This document shows, piece by piece, positions 19,612 through 59,216 of a DNA stretch of 64,000 nt. The stretch lies in contig NZ_CP020042.1 in NCBI RefSeq assembly GCF_002028425.1, positions 5,369,560 to 5,433,559 on the forward strand, given 5' to 3'. A program made the position numbers and the translations under genes. The stretch comes from Streptomyces katrae (GTDB lineage: Bacteria; Actinomycetota; Actinomycetes; Streptomycetales; Streptomycetaceae). How positions within the stretch are numbered: position 1 is the first letter of the stretch; every line of letters starts with the position of its first letter. The notes under the pieces were generated by a model. The model made no database searches and was not told the origin of the DNA. It saw only the letters and a list, made by a program, of their open reading frames with translations.

Positions 19612-19654
19612 GAGTCGGGAGACCTCTCCAGCACCTCGTGGATGGACGTACGCG

Positions 19655-19825
19655 CCCCGGCCGGTCTCCTGGCTGACGGGTACTGCCGCCCCGGCTCCGC
19701 CTTCCCGGGTCCCTGCGGTCTCCCGCACGGTCCCAGTGGCTCCCGCGAGGGGTGGAGCTGGACTTCCCGATCACAGTGGCGAGGGCCGCACCGGTTTTCC
19801 ACCGGTTTCCCGAACACCAAGGCCA
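19655..19825 (-). ncRNA. Cobalamin (B12) riboswitch upstream of cbiMNQO
   Basis: On the reverse strand the conserved blocks appear in order: GGTGTTCGGGAAACCGGTGG, CGCCACTGTGATCGGGAAGT, GAGCCACTGG, GGGAAGGCGG and GTCAGCCAGGAGACCGGCC (19659-19677). These match the cobalamin aptamer core. It ends about 45 bases before cbiM. High B12 should shut down cobalt import. A GGTCTCC segment overlapping the cbiM ribosome site (19618-19624) is complementary to GGAGACC in the aptamer (19662-19668), suggesting translational control. Confidence 0.93.
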
Positions 19826-19959
19826 GCTGACCCTAGTCGCCCGCACGGACCGGTATCAACCCGGACCGATCCGGCCGATCGGATGGCTCAATTCCGCTTC
19901 GCCCCCCGGAAGGGTGCCGAACGCTGGCGCGGGCGGCGGCGGCCCCGCAGGGTGGGGGC

Positions 19960-26429: not shown

Positions 26430-26645
26430 CGAGGACGATCCTCCCCATCTGTCATCGGAACCTGAGAGGTTCGCCGGGAGTTCCCACGGGGGAACGCCGA
26501 CTTGCACCTTGGGTGGAGCTGGCGGACAGCTCGCTTTTCAGATCTGCCTCATCCACGCGGTACGGGGCCTGAGAGATTCAAGGGAGGTACTTGCTCCTTC
26601 GGCGCCCGGGCACGGCCTCGCGGCCAGCCGGGACTCTCCCGCGCG
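26430..26645 (-). ncRNA. Tandem glycine riboswitch upstream of gcvT
   Basis: Two complete glycine aptamers are readable on the reverse strand. Aptamer I (about 26535-26643) has CCGAAGGAGCAAG (26590-26602) and AATCTCTCAGG (26568-26578). Aptamer II (about 26436-26520) has CCAAGGTGCAAG (26501-26512) and AACCTCTCAGG (26461-26471). The short linker and order match glycine-activated gcv leaders. Glycine should turn on gcvT-gcvH-glyA. A GAGGA/TCCTC hairpin follows aptamer II and may belong to the expression platform. Confidence 0.95.
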
Positions 26646-26876
26646 GATTCAAGCGGCCGGTATGCAGTTGGTGTCCAGATGGCGCACATCATTGCACGGG
26701 TCGGGCGGAAGCGGGCAGCGGGGCCCGGAAGAAGGTACGGAACGCCCGTGCCCCCTGCGCTCCCGGGGTCCCGGGTGCTGGACGCCGGGCCCGGAACCGA
26801 CCGGCGCGGATTACCGTCTCTTTACATTCAGCGGGCATGGGGCCCTCGCGGTCCGACTCGGGGGGAGACGATCACG
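26646..26876. other. Divergent promoter region between the gcvT leader and the P-loop protein gene
   Basis: The stretch of 231 bp holds no gene I can support. The gcvT promoter must lie here on the reverse strand, upstream of aptamer I, and the promoter of the downstream P-loop gene on the forward strand; TTTACATTC near 26821 is an AT-rich candidate element. I could not settle exact hexamers. Confidence 0.45.
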
Positions 26877-55761: not shown

Positions 55762-56559
55762 ATGTCCGTCATCACCACCGCCCCCTACGCCCGCACCGTC
55801 CGCAAGGAGAGCGGCGGTCCCGGTCTGCTGCTGGCCCACGGTGGGGGCGGCGCCGTCGAGAGCAACTTCGGGGCGATCCTCGACGAGCTCGCCGCCGGGC
55901 ACAGCGTCGTCGCCGTCGACTACCCCGGCGCCGGGAACACCCCGGTGGCCGAGGGGCCGCTCCGGCTGGACGAGCTCGCCGACCAGTTGGTCGCCGCCGC
56001 CGACGCCGAGGGGCTGGAGACCTTCGCGGTGCTCGGGTACTCCCTCGGGGGGAACGTGGCGCTCAGGGTCGCCGCCCGCTACCCCGAGCGGGTCACGGCG
56101 CTGGTGCTCACCGCCAGCTTCGTCCGCGCGGGGAACCGGCTGAAGCAGGTCGCCGACCTGTGGTCGGGGCTGGCCGCGCGGGGTGAGAACGAGATGCTGG
56201 CCCGGCTGATGGTGCCGCTGGCGCTCAACCCGGCGGTGTTTGAGGGGCTGAGCCCGGAGGAGGCCGAGGAGGTGGTGCGGGCGACCGCCGCTTCCGTGCC
56301 GGCCGGCACGGTGGGGCAGGTCGACCTGGTCAAGGGGGCCGATCTGCGGGCGGAGGCCGCGGGGGTCTCCGTGCCGGCCCTGGTGATCGCGACCACCGAG
56401 GACCGGCTCGTACCCCTGGAGCTCCAGCGCGAGCTGGCCGAGGCCGTGCCGGGCGCCCGGTACGCGGAACTGCCCACCGGGCACCTCCCCTTCGCCGAGC
56501 GCCCGGCGGAATGGGCCGCGCTGATCACGGAGTTCCTCAGTGAGCTGCGGGCCGGCTGA
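55762..56559 (+). CDS. Alpha/beta hydrolase
   Basis: A 265-residue cytosolic alpha/beta-fold hydrolase. The oxyanion segment is LLAHGGGGAVESNFG, the nucleophile elbow VLGYSLGGNVALRVAA (Ser about residue 96), the acid is in IATTEDRLVPLELQ and the His in PTGHLPFAERP. Substrate unknown; similar proteins are esterases or epoxide/haloperoxidase-like enzymes. GAGGATC precedes the ATG. Divergent from the XRE gene across strong inverted repeats, so it may be its target. Confidence 0.9.
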   Translation: MSVITTAPYARTVRKESGGPGLLLAHGGGGAVESNFGAILDELAAGHSVVAVDYPGAGNTPVAEGPLRLDELADQLVAAADAEGLETFAVLGYSLGGNVALRVAARYPERVTALVLTASFVRAGNRLKQVADLWSGLAARGENEMLARLMVPLALNPAVFEGLSPEEAEEVVRATAASVPAGTVGQVDLVKGADLRAEAAGVSVPALVIATTEDRLVPLELQRELAEAVPGARYAELPTGHLPFAERPAEWAALITEFLSELRAG

Positions 56560-57121
56560 GGAAGGCCAGGCGGGCGGGCTTGGCCGGGAGGTAGACCTCG
56601 GGGAGGTCGATCTCCGGGAGTTCCACCTCCGGGCCGAGCTCGAAGCCCGTGCGTTCCAGCAGGGCGATGGCCTTCGCGTTGCGGGCGTCGGGTTCGCCGA
56701 CGATCCGCAGCGCGCCGCCGTCCGTGAACAGGTAGGTGAGGAAGGCCTCCATGAGGGCCCCCGTGAAGCCGCGCCGGGCCGATCCCCGGGTGGGGGCGAG
56801 CAGCAGGTGCACGCCGACGTCCCCCGGGCGGACCTCGTAGCACTCGCCGACCCGGTCCTCGGCGCAGTCGTACGTCTGGAAGAGGGCGACCGGCTCCCCG
56901 TCGAGGGCGACCATGAACGCGTGGTGGGTGGTGCGGCGGTCCACGTCCTCGTAGATCTCCTGCACCAGCTCGCGGCTCGCTTCGCCCATGCCCCAGAAGC
57001 GTGCGCGCTCCTCGGTGACCCAGCTGTGGATCAGCGCGGCGTCGGCGGCGGGGTCGACCGGGGCGAAGGAGACCGTGCCGAAGCCCTCGACGCGGTGGGT
57101 GTAGACCGGGGTGCGGGTCAT
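56537..57121 (-). CDS. GNAT acetyltransferase, siderophore-biosynthesis (IucB/MbtK/Acetyltransf_8) type
   Basis: A 194-residue N-acyltransferase. The C-terminal half carries DVGVHLLLAPTRGSARRGFT, then LRIVGEPDARNAKAIALLER and the ending LPAKPARLAFLSR. The EPDxRN block is the hallmark of the branch that acylates N-hydroxy-lysine or -cadaverine in siderophore pathways. Its ATG overlaps the stop of the penicillin-acylase gene (ATGA), so both come from one iron-boxed promoter. No NIS synthetase, monooxygenase or NRPS lies in the window, so it may modify an imported or remotely made compound. The end overlaps the convergent hydrolase by 23 bp. Confidence 0.85.
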   Translation of the reverse strand: MTRTPVYTHRVEGFGTVSFAPVDPAADAALIHSWVTEERARFWGMGEASRELVQEIYEDVDRRTTHHAFMVALDGEPVALFQTYDCAEDRVGECYEVRPGDVGVHLLLAPTRGSARRGFTGALMEAFLTYLFTDGGALRIVGEPDARNAKAIALLERTGFELGPEVELPEIDLPEVYLPAKPARLAFLSRPAAH

Positions 57122-59175
57122 GAGGGTTCCTTGGTGAGGCGGGTCCAGTCGGTGACGACCGGGACGAGTTCGCAGCGCGCCCAGAGCGGGAGCTGGTCGC
57201 GGTGGTGGGGGGAGCCGGTGACGCCGTCGGCCCCGAGCGGGACGGCCCAGAGGCTGTTCTCCCGGTCGGCCAGGTCCCAGACGTAGCGGGCCGCCGAGGC
57301 GCGGGCCACGGTGTCGGTGACGCCGGGGACGGAGGAGGTGGCGTTCACGCAGTCGTGGTCCCCGCCCAGGCCGGGCCATTCGGCCTCCGGGTCCGGTACG
57401 GCCTGCCAGGGGGTCAGGCGGTGGGCGACCGACCAGGGGGCCTCGGGCGCGTCGGCCGCCGCCGTCTCCTCCAGGGCGGCGCGGACGTGCGCCGCGCGGT
57501 CCAGGCCGGGCAGGAGGGGCGTGGTGAGGAGGCCCTCCAGGGCGTAGCCGACCCGGGGGAGCAGGTACAGCCAGGGGTGGAACACCTCGGGGCCCGTGGG
57601 GGCGCCCGCCAGGGCCGCGAAGGCCGGGTCGGCCGCGAGACGGCGTACGACGGCCGTGCGGAAGGCCGCGAAGACGGCGGCGTCGGTGCTGTCGGCCTCC
57701 ATGTGCCGGTCCCAGGCCAGCAGCCGGTCACGGAGTCCGGCCGCGGCGGGGGAGAGGGTGCCGAGGCCCGGCAGCAGGGCGAGCAGCGGTTCGGCGGAGG
57801 CCAGGTAGGTGTCGCGGTGGACCTCGGCCATGGCCTGGGGGGACCAGTTGGCGGACCCGCCGAGCAGGGCCCGGATCCGGTCGGCGCGGTGCGGGGGAGC
57901 GAACTCCACGCCGAGGGGGGAGGCGATCCCGCGCGCGTTCGCCATCACCGCGAAGCCCTGCACCGGCTCGGCGGGGGTCTCGGCCCAGCCCCGCCAGGCG
58001 TGCCGGGCCTCCCAGGCGGGCACCGGGCGCAGGCGGTTGGCGGCCTCGCGCAGCGGGACGGCGCCCGCGACCCGGTGCAGCAGGCCGCCCTGGGTGTCGG
58101 CGGCGTGCACCACGTTGACGGGCTCGGCCCAGCCGTCGAGGGCGCGGTCCACGTCGGCGACGGTGCGGGCGCGCAGCAGGGCGGGCAGGGCGGCGAAGCC
58201 GAGGTCGGCGCGGACGCGGGGCGGGTAGCGCAGGGAGAGGGTGGCGGAGTCGTCGTTGACGATCACCGGGCCGCGGGCGGTCTCCAGGACCTCCACCTCG
58301 ACGTCCTCGGCGCCGGCCACCGTGATGGTCTCGGTGTGGCGGGCGACGGGCTCCCACTCGCCGCCGGGGCCCAGCGCCTCGACGCCGTAGGCCGCCGGGC
58401 GCAGCCGCTCGGTGTAGAGGTCCTGGTAGTCGGCCATGGCGTTGGTGATGGCCCAGGCGACGGAACCGGCATGGCCGAAGTGGGCCAGGCCCGGGACGCC
58501 GGGGACGGCCAGGCCGAGGACGTCGTACTCCGGGCAGGCGAGGCGGATCTGCTGGTAGACGCCCGGGTCCTCGATGAACCGGTGCGGGTCGCCCGCGATG
58601 ATCGCGGCGCCGGTGGCGGTGCGGTCGCCCGGGACCAGCCAGCCGTTGCTCCCGGCGGTGCCCGGGCCGTCGGTGGCGAAGAGGGTGGCGGCCCCGTCGC
58701 CCAGGGCGCGGGCGACGCGGTCGCGCCAGAGCTTGGTGGCGAAGCCCGCGAACAGGATGTGGGTGCCGATCCAGACCGAGAGCGGGACCCACGGCTCCCA
58801 GGGGGCCGGGGTGTGGCCGGCGGCGGCGAAGCGGTCGTCGCGGGCCGCGCCCTCGGCCAGGCCCGCGTTGACCCCGTCGACGTAGGCGGCGACCCAGGCG
58901 GCGGTGTCCGGGTCCAGGGACTCGAAGCACCGGCGGGCCGTGTCGTCGAGGCGGGCCTGGCGGGCGAAGCGGTCCCAGGGCACGCAGTCGGCCCCGAGGA
59001 ACGAGGCGCTGGAGCCCTGCGCGCGGTGCCGCTCCACCTCCAGCTGCCAGGCCCGGTCGCGGGCGGTGATCCGGCCCTGGGCGTAGGAGAGGCGGAGCGG
59101 GTCGGACGCGAGCAGGTGCGGGACGCCCCAGCTGTCGCGGTAGACCTCGTAGGCCTCGGTGGTCACGGCGCTCAC
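57118..59175 (-). CDS. Penicillin acylase family N-terminal-nucleophile hydrolase
   Basis: A 685-residue member of the penicillin-amidase Ntn family, which splits itself into alpha and beta chains. The beta chain would begin at Ser in GTAGSNGWLVPGDRTATGAA (about residue 172), matching GSNxW. IIAGDPHRFIEDPGVYQQIR follows as expected, and an oxyanion-type Asn lies further on. There is no clear signal peptide (MSAVTTEAYEVYRDSWGVPH), unlike most secreted acylases, so it may act in the cytosol. GTG 59175 has GGGGGAAGAG upstream. It is under a strong iron box and coupled to a siderophore-type acetyltransferase. Confidence 0.9.
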   Translation of the reverse strand: MSAVTTEAYEVYRDSWGVPHLLASDPLRLSYAQGRITARDRAWQLEVERHRAQGSSASFLGADCVPWDRFARQARLDDTARRCFESLDPDTAAWVAAYVDGVNAGLAEGAARDDRFAAAGHTPAPWEPWVPLSVWIGTHILFAGFATKLWRDRVARALGDGAATLFATDGPGTAGSNGWLVPGDRTATGAAIIAGDPHRFIEDPGVYQQIRLACPEYDVLGLAVPGVPGLAHFGHAGSVAWAITNAMADYQDLYTERLRPAAYGVEALGPGGEWEPVARHTETITVAGAEDVEVEVLETARGPVIVNDDSATLSLRYPPRVRADLGFAALPALLRARTVADVDRALDGWAEPVNVVHAADTQGGLLHRVAGAVPLREAANRLRPVPAWEARHAWRGWAETPAEPVQGFAVMANARGIASPLGVEFAPPHRADRIRALLGGSANWSPQAMAEVHRDTYLASAEPLLALLPGLGTLSPAAAGLRDRLLAWDRHMEADSTDAAVFAAFRTAVVRRLAADPAFAALAGAPTGPEVFHPWLYLLPRVGYALEGLLTTPLLPGLDRAAHVRAALEETAAADAPEAPWSVAHRLTPWQAVPDPEAEWPGLGGDHDCVNATSSVPGVTDTVARASAARYVWDLADRENSLWAVPLGADGVTGSPHHRDQLPLWARCELVPVVTDWTRLTKEPS

Positions 59176-59192
59176 GCTCTTCCCCCAGTGTC

Positions 59193-59216
59193 TTAGGTTA
59201 GGCTGGCCTAACTATA
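59193..59216 (-). promoter_or_regulatory. Iron box (DmdR/IdeR-type) and -10 of the acylase/GNAT operon
   Basis: TTAGGTTAGGCTGGCCTAA (59193-59211) fits the 19-bp DmdR1/IdeR consensus except for two central-right positions. On the reverse strand TATAGT (complement of 59211-59216) is a good -10 next to it, so repressor-Fe2+ binding would block transcription start. It lies 17 bp upstream of the acylase GTG. Confidence 0.9.

What the first reader, a model, noticed from the sequence alone, without database searches (positions are those of the whole stretch)
56537..59216. Iron-boxed operon pairing a cytosolic-looking penicillin acylase with a siderophore-type GNAT
Seen: a 19-bp near-consensus iron box abutting a TATAGT -10, then a penicillin-amidase-family Ntn hydrolase with intact GSNxW and no signal peptide, then (ATGA overlap) a GNAT with the EPDxRN block of IucB/MbtK-like N-acyltransferases. 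Known: PvdQ, from the same Ntn family, deacylates pyoverdine precursors, and IdeR/DmdR boxes mark iron-starvation genes. Inference: one unit may acylate and deacylate hydroxamate or lipopeptide siderophore intermediates, or recycle foreign siderophores, without a local biosynthetic cluster. I know of no characterised example of this two-gene unit.
Basis: partly seen in the sequence, partly recalled or inferred. Interest (0 to 1): 0.8.

Follow-up and report, generated by a model that had tools for sequence, protein, structure and literature searches.

The report
Iron-controlled desferrioxamine B tailoring gene pair
This is the Streptomyces desG-desH gene pair, which sits behind an iron-control site and is already known from a related species to help the cell make the iron-scavenging molecule desferrioxamine B, so the finding is real but ordinary.

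Summary
The window holds a near-perfect iron box, a PF01804 acylase without a signal peptide, and an ATGA-coupled PF13523 acyltransferase: the desGH architecture characterised in S. coelicolor (SCO4049-4050, PMC12161575). There, loss of desG or desH cut desferrioxamine B about 1000-fold and 16-fold; the proposal is that DesG removes succinate from N-hydroxy-N-succinylcadaverine and DesH puts acetate on. The des cluster lies about 2.5 Mb away in the same chromosome. Support found here: in 199 genomes of the genus DesG is in 113 of 155 with DesD but 1 of 44 without, and that one is a broken remnant. In a class sample outside the genus it is in 21 of 41 against 3 of 227. Of 80 relatives, 79 have DesH downstream and 72 their own box; 7 of the other 8 sit beside des genes. 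The DesG model matches D-succinylase best, then glutaryl acylases, ahead of penicillin G acylase and PvdQ. Against: three genomes keep a whole DesG without DesD, DesH or box. I saw no in vitro proof of desuccinylation in the passages read.

The parts
59193..59211 (.). iron box (DmdR1/IdeR-type operator), TTAGGTTAGGCTGGCCTAA
   Evidence: 0 in 100 shuffles; near-palindrome; a box of at least 15/19 within 250 bp upstream of DesG in 72 of 80 relatives
59211..59216 (-). TATAGT, putative -10 element sharing its last base with the box
   Evidence: read directly in the sequence; also next to the box in 4 of the 5 relatives printed (L005, L008, L010, L014; not L006)
57118..59175 (-). desG: Ntn-hydrolase (penicillin-amidase family), 685 aa, probably cytosolic, probable N-hydroxy-N-succinylcadaverine desuccinylase
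   Evidence: PF01804 506 bits; Ser176 invariant in 29 of 29 aligned; best fold match D-succinylase
56537..57121 (-). desH: GNAT N-acyltransferase, 194 aa, probable N-hydroxycadaverine acetyltransferase
   Evidence: PF13523 165 bits; best solved relative by sequence is DfoC; 36% identical to this genome's own DesC; DesH and DesC form two separate groups in the tree
57118..57121 (-). ATGA overlap: desG stop / desH start, translational coupling (inferred)
   Evidence: read directly; the two genes lie in one open frame in 6 of 80 relatives

Best explanation
The unit is desGH. Under iron starvation the DmdR1-type repressor leaves the box at 59193-59211, and the two genes are transcribed as one message. 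DesG (Ntn hydrolase, self-cleaving at Gly175/Ser176) removes succinate in the cytosol from N-hydroxy-N-succinylcadaverine made by DesC; DesH acetylates the freed N-hydroxycadaverine; DesD then joins acetyl-capped and succinyl monomers into desferrioxamine B instead of cyclising three succinyl monomers into desferrioxamine E. Shown here: box, genes, overlap, the des cluster elsewhere in the genome, and co-occurrence. Shown by others in S. coelicolor: the need for both genes in desferrioxamine B production. Inferred: the substrates and reactions, self-cleavage, DmdR1 binding at this box, and that this strain makes desferrioxamine B.
For: Same two Pfam families, within the spacing used by the published desGH rule (PF01804 + PF13523 within 1 kb, methods passage; here). 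Full des cluster with two boxes in the same genome, and this is the only one of 3 PF01804 genes lying next to a PF13523 match. DesG in 113 of 155 DesD+ and 1 of 44 DesD- genomes of the genus (recount; Fisher p 1.2e-18); outside the genus 21 of 41 against 3 of 227 (p 5e-17). DesH adjacent in 79 of 80, own box in 72 of 80. Fold nearest to D-succinylase and glutaryl acylases (sequence); DesH nearest to DfoC among solved proteins. Published knock-outs, complementation and metabolite profiles in S. coelicolor.
Against: No direct sequence comparison with SCO4049/4050 was possible: no S. coelicolor record was among the fetched named loci. The lengths deduced from the paper's truncations (about 781 and 205 aa) differ from 685 and 194 here. 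The adjacent desJ of S. coelicolor and of many relatives is missing here. Three genomes (G258, G316, G407; L115-L117) keep a whole DesG frame about 50% identical without DesD, DesH or box, two of them at the same place as intact DesGH pairs of related genomes, so DesG may have a use without the pathway. The structure model is of moderate confidence (mean pLDDT 71.6; residues 585-673 below 50).
Confidence: 0.88

Rival explanations
1. DesG installs or exchanges aryl (phenylacetyl) caps on desferrioxamines, the role first proposed for desG.
For: Family resemblance to penicillin G acylase; the earlier hypothesis is reported in PMC12161575.
Against: Penicillin G acylase chains score below glutaryl acylase and D-succinylase chains by sequence (best 101 bits against 244 and 138) and rank lower by fold (first at rank 14). 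PMC12161575 states that no arylated desferrioxamines have been identified in S. coelicolor although it has desG.
Confidence: 0.07
2. The pair serves the genome's second NIS siderophore locus (two IucA/IucC-type synthetases and a PF13523 gene near C1:5.73 Mb) rather than desferrioxamine.
For: Such a locus exists and carries its own PF13523 gene.
Against: 37 of 199 genomes of the genus have only a weaker DesD-like match (E about 1e-77 to 1e-97), as this locus gives, and no DesD; DesG is absent from 37 of 37. That the weak match is the same locus in each was not checked. The fetched 15 kb around the second locus shows no box at 14/19 or better.
Confidence: 0.03
3. The pair recycles foreign acylated siderophores or signals (PvdQ-like scavenging or quorum quenching), or DesG has a second, non-biosynthetic use.
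For: Ntn fold shared with PvdQ and AHL acylases; three genomes keep a whole DesG frame without DesD or DesH.
Against: No signal peptide is possible with ATG/GTG/TTG starts; PvdQ model cut-off missed by far; strong association with the cell's own DesD; desG is broken in the one genome of the genus sample that has a DesG match but no DesD.
Confidence: 0.04

Closest known systems
desJGH operon of Streptomyces coelicolor (SCO4048-4050), Augustijn et al. 2025, PMC12161575
   Same: PF01804 gene with a PF13523 gene, reported as DmdR1-controlled, unlinked to the des cluster but in a des-containing genome
   Different: desJ (paralogue of the ferrioxamine reductase gene desF) is absent here; the locus sits beside gatAB; shorter reading frames
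D-succinylase of Cupriavidus (7eby, 7ea4) and class III cephalosporin / glutaryl-7-ACA acylases (4hsr, 4hst)
   Same: closest folds of the DesG model and among the best sequence matches; named for removing dicarboxylic acyl groups
   Different: 25-34% identity in the Foldseek alignments; their names give other substrates (D-succinyl compounds, cephalosporins)
PvdQ (pyoverdine precursor and AHL acylase)
   Same: Ntn hydrolase linked to siderophores
   Different: periplasmic and long-chain (recalled); 36.9 bits against a cut-off of 950
DesC / DfoC N-acyltransferases
   Same: same PF13523 family; DfoC is the best solved match of DesH
   Different: DesH is a separate group, 36% identical to this genome's DesC

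Membership tests
desGH (desferrioxamine B tailoring pair) | PF01804 and PF13523 genes within 1 kb | tested here: met
   published rule seen
desGH (desferrioxamine B tailoring pair) | DmdR1-type iron box upstream, or location in the des cluster | tested here: met
   box present by sequence; binding not tested
desGH (desferrioxamine B tailoring pair) | desABCD in the same genome | tested here: met
desGH (desferrioxamine B tailoring pair) | Direct orthology to SCO4049/SCO4050 sequences | tested here: inconclusive
   S. coelicolor sequence not fetched; indirect fingerprint only: from some start codon a Trp at position 61 of DesG occurs in most of the 80 relatives (but, of the window's nearest group L005-L016, only in L007), and Trp55 with Gln68 in a DesJ frame of 240-247 aa in L015, L016, L037, L061, L063, L076
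desGH (desferrioxamine B tailoring pair) | Loss abolishes or reduces desferrioxamine B | not testable with these tools
   shown in S. coelicolor only
desGH (desferrioxamine B tailoring pair) | desJ next to desGH (S. coelicolor arrangement) | tested here: not met
   only 76 bp lie between the DesG start and the next gene; a SIP-family gene is there in relatives L005 and L008. I do not count it as defining: 60 of 80 relatives show none by the filter, which undercounts (it missed L008)
PvdQ | NCBIfam NF051460 cut-off 950 bits | tested here: not met
   36.9 bits
PvdQ | signal peptide / periplasmic location (recalled) | tested here: not met
   first possible start gives a non-hydrophobic N terminus, judged by eye
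AAC(6') aminoglycoside acetyltransferase (for the GNAT) | NCBIfam cut-offs 260-415 bits | tested here: not met
   best 37.2 bits

The most novel reading that the evidence does not exclude
DesG acts as an acyl-editing enzyme not only on the free monomer but on DesD-bound or finished desferrioxamine chains, trimming succinyl ends so that DesH can cap them; DesGH would then be a general end-editing module that sets the mix of caps (acetyl, acyl, aryl) in each species. The whole DesG frames that persist in genomes without DesD would fit such an enzyme working on hydroxamates made by others.
Probability: 0.1. Interest if true: 0.5.

Novelty: already known. Interest (0 to 1): 0.18.

Why it matters
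Desferrioxamine B is an iron-overload drug, and desGH is what the published work links to making B rather than E. The value here is confirmation on a broader genome sample: the pair tracks DesD across the genus and the class, nearly always carries its own iron box when it lies away from the des cluster, and its acylase resembles desuccinylases, which supports the published mechanism.

Tried and rejected
PvdQ-like or AHL-acylase role: disfavoured on family cut-off, lack of signal peptide and co-occurrence. Phenylacetyl-cap role: not excluded, but less favoured on sequence and fold ranking. Second NIS locus as partner: disfavoured by 37 of 37 genomes that have only the weaker synthetase match and lack DesG. 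Aminoglycoside acetyltransferase for the GNAT: cut-offs not met.

Results against my reading: whole DesG frames about 50% identical in G258, G316 and G407 have no DesD at E 1e-60, and no DesH and no box in the 18 kb fetched. In G344, G390 and G335, the 3 of 21 non-genus genomes where DesG is far from DesD, DesH does lie next to DesG; a box of 15/19 is found near DesG in G344 only. L073 has only a 13/19 box although it is away from des genes. 42 of 155 DesD+ genomes of the genus lack DesG, which fits producers of desferrioxamine E only but was not tested. The cut between DesD and its paralogues (E 1e-220 in the genus, 1e-139 in the class) was chosen by me after seeing the gap in E-values. The counts were made by hand from the printed tables and recounted by script from typed handle lists. 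The class sample (296) contains 28 genomes of the genus, some of them also in the genus sample; the non-genus figures are independent of it. The tool gives no genus name; that the genus is Streptomyces is inferred from the named nearest relatives. Cruz-Morales et al. 2017, where I recall desG being proposed first, is not held; I know it only from memory and from what PMC12161575 says.
Full report
Observation. All stated features are present. The 19-bp box at 59193-59211 has 17 of 19 positions of the (recalled) consensus and none was seen in 100 shuffles of the window. Genome-wide, with up to 2 mismatches to TTAGGTTAGGCTNNCCTAA, it is one of four places, against none for the reversed control. 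TATAGT ends on the first base of the box on the minus strand, and 17 bases lie between the box and the GTG start of the acylase. The acylase frame (685 aa) has no upstream ATG/GTG/TTG, so a cytosolic product is expected. The GNAT start overlaps the acylase stop (ATGA). Pfam: PF01804 at 506 bits and PF13523 at 165 bits.

What it is. PMC12161575 (abstract and outline, passages, and sections 13 and 14 read) describes desJGH of S. coelicolor: a locus reported as DmdR1-controlled, outside the des cluster, with a penicillin-amidase-family gene (SCO4049, desG) and a DesC-like acyltransferase gene (SCO4050, desH). The desG and desH mutants made about 1000-fold and 16-fold less desferrioxamine B and more E; complemented strains recovered B production; the desJ mutant made more B. 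The authors propose HSC -> N-hydroxycadaverine (DesG) -> HAC (DesH). A second paper, PMC13011467 (one passage seen), reports desG and desH going down with des and cch under salt. So the two-gene unit is characterised; the searches each list this primary report. No in vitro activity of DesG is stated in the passages I read.

The rest of the pathway in this genome. A des cluster lies at about C1:2.8907-2.8980 Mb: Peripla_BP_2 (desE), SIP/FAD reductase (desF), Pyridoxal_deC (desA), Lys_Orn_oxgnase (desB), PF13523 (desC) and IucA_IucC-FhuF (desD), with a 15/19 box before desE and a 19/19 box before desA. The window begins at C1:5369560, so the pair is about 2.5 Mb away. Of three PF01804 genes in the genome only the window's is next to a PF13523 match.

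Relatives. DesH lies directly downstream in 79 of 80; in the remaining one (L041) the contig ends 119 bases after the DesG match. Loci fall into 13 beside gat/MST genes as in the window, 10 with at least two des biosynthetic genes in the same stretch, and 57 elsewhere. A box of at least 15/19 lies within 250 bp upstream of DesG in 72 of 80; equal-sized control stretches inside DesG gave at most 11 and at the end of DesG at most 12 (80 loci each). No further box of 15/19 was found outside the stretches around DesG and des-family genes (loci 1.36 Mb in all, those stretches included). Seven of the eight without a box are among the 10 loci beside des genes (L018, L029, L033, L039, L049, L053, L057); the other three of those 10 (L019, L043, L047) have one. 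In L033 and L039 the des genes run away from DesG and the nearest box is about 3 kb upstream. The eighth, L073, has 13/19. So the pair has its own box in 69 of 70 loci away from des genes. desG and desH lie in one open frame in 6 of 80 (L027, L028, L040, L058, L063, L078); the paper reports fusions in S. atratus and two Micrococcus strains. A divergent reductase gene (desJ) lies next to DesG in at least 20 of 80 by my filter, an undercount since L008's was missed; the window lacks it, as only 76 bp separate DesG from the next gene.

Co-occurrence. In 199 genomes of the genus DesG (E <= 1e-60) is in 114. DesD proper (E <= 1e-220) is in 155, only a weaker match (about 1e-77 to 1e-97) in 37, neither in 7. 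DesG is in 113 of 155 DesD+ and 1 of 44 DesD- genomes (recount; Fisher p 1.2e-18). The one exception, G012, keeps only pieces of desG at the same gat-side place, and tblastn finds no DesH in the 17 kb fetched: probably decay after loss of desferrioxamine synthesis. The 37 genomes with only the weaker match lack DesG in 37 of 37, which speaks against the second NIS pathway as the partner. In a class-wide sample of 296 genomes (28 of them of the genus), DesG is in 40 of 65 DesD+ (E <= 1e-139) and 3 of 231 DesD- genomes. Outside the genus the figures are 21 of 41 against 3 of 227 (p 5e-17), and in 18 of the 21 DesG lies within about 10.3 kb, start to start, of DesD on the same contig. In the other three (G335, G344, G390) DesG is elsewhere but DesH is next to it. 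The three exceptions without DesD (G258, G316, G407), of the same genus-level group as those, keep a whole DesG frame about 50% identical without DesH or box; in two of them it stands beside the same MarR/GNAT-domain gene as the DesGH pairs of G344 and G335. They look like the same gene after loss of DesH and DesD. That DesG stays whole there counts against a strict dependence on the pathway.

Mechanism. By sequence DesG is nearest, among solved proteins, to an unspecified 'penicillin acylase family protein' (35sz, 370 bits), then to class III cephalosporin (glutaryl) acylases (244 bits) and D-succinylase (138 bits), ahead of penicillin G acylases (at most 101 bits) and PvdQ (28 bits) (several entries are split into chains that were scored apart). 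By fold of an AlphaFold2 model (mean pLDDT 71.6, pTM 0.79) the first four matches are D-succinylase and the next eight cephalosporin or glutaryl-7-ACA acylases; penicillin acylase is first at rank 14 and PvdQ at rank 38 (50 of 181 matches were shown; 35sz is not among them). This supports removal of a succinyl group over a phenylacetyl or long-chain one, without proving it. DesH is best matched by DfoC (91 bits), is 36% identical to this genome's DesC, and falls into a group separate from DesC (34 of 80 DesH rows and 9 of 9 DesC rows used; support 100/100), as expected for a paralogue with another acyl donor.

Verdict. Interest is low as a discovery and moderate as support for a published model whose key reaction I saw no direct proof of.

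Noticed in passing
window 19642-19836 (-): Cobalamin riboswitch, 77.4 bits.
   Followed up: no
window 26548-26651 (-): Glycine riboswitch, 64.8 bits.
   Followed up: no
L118:7757-8812 (G012): Broken desG remnant, no DesH found by tblastn in the 17 kb, at the same gat-side place, in a genome of the genus with no DesD match at E 1e-60.
   Followed up: partly
L115, L116, L117 (G258, G316, G407): Whole DesG frame about 50% identical, without DesH, box or DesD; in L115 and L116 beside the same MarR/GNAT-domain gene as the DesGH pairs of L119 and L121. An orphan DesG that may have another use.
   Followed up: partly
G000:C1:5.730-5.737 Mb (L104): Second NIS siderophore locus (two IucA/IucC-type synthetases and a PF13523 gene), no box of 14/19 in the 15 kb fetched; weaker DesD-like matches of this kind are common in the genus.
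   Followed up: no
L084: The desG frame of S. regalis is interrupted by one stop codon at about codon 312 of the match; assembly error or decayed gene.
   Followed up: partly
G000:C1:5898655-5898673 (L003, L106) and 1568058-1568076 (L004, L107): Two further iron-box-like sites in the genome, 1 and 2 mismatches to the pattern; the genes they control were not identified.
   Followed up: no
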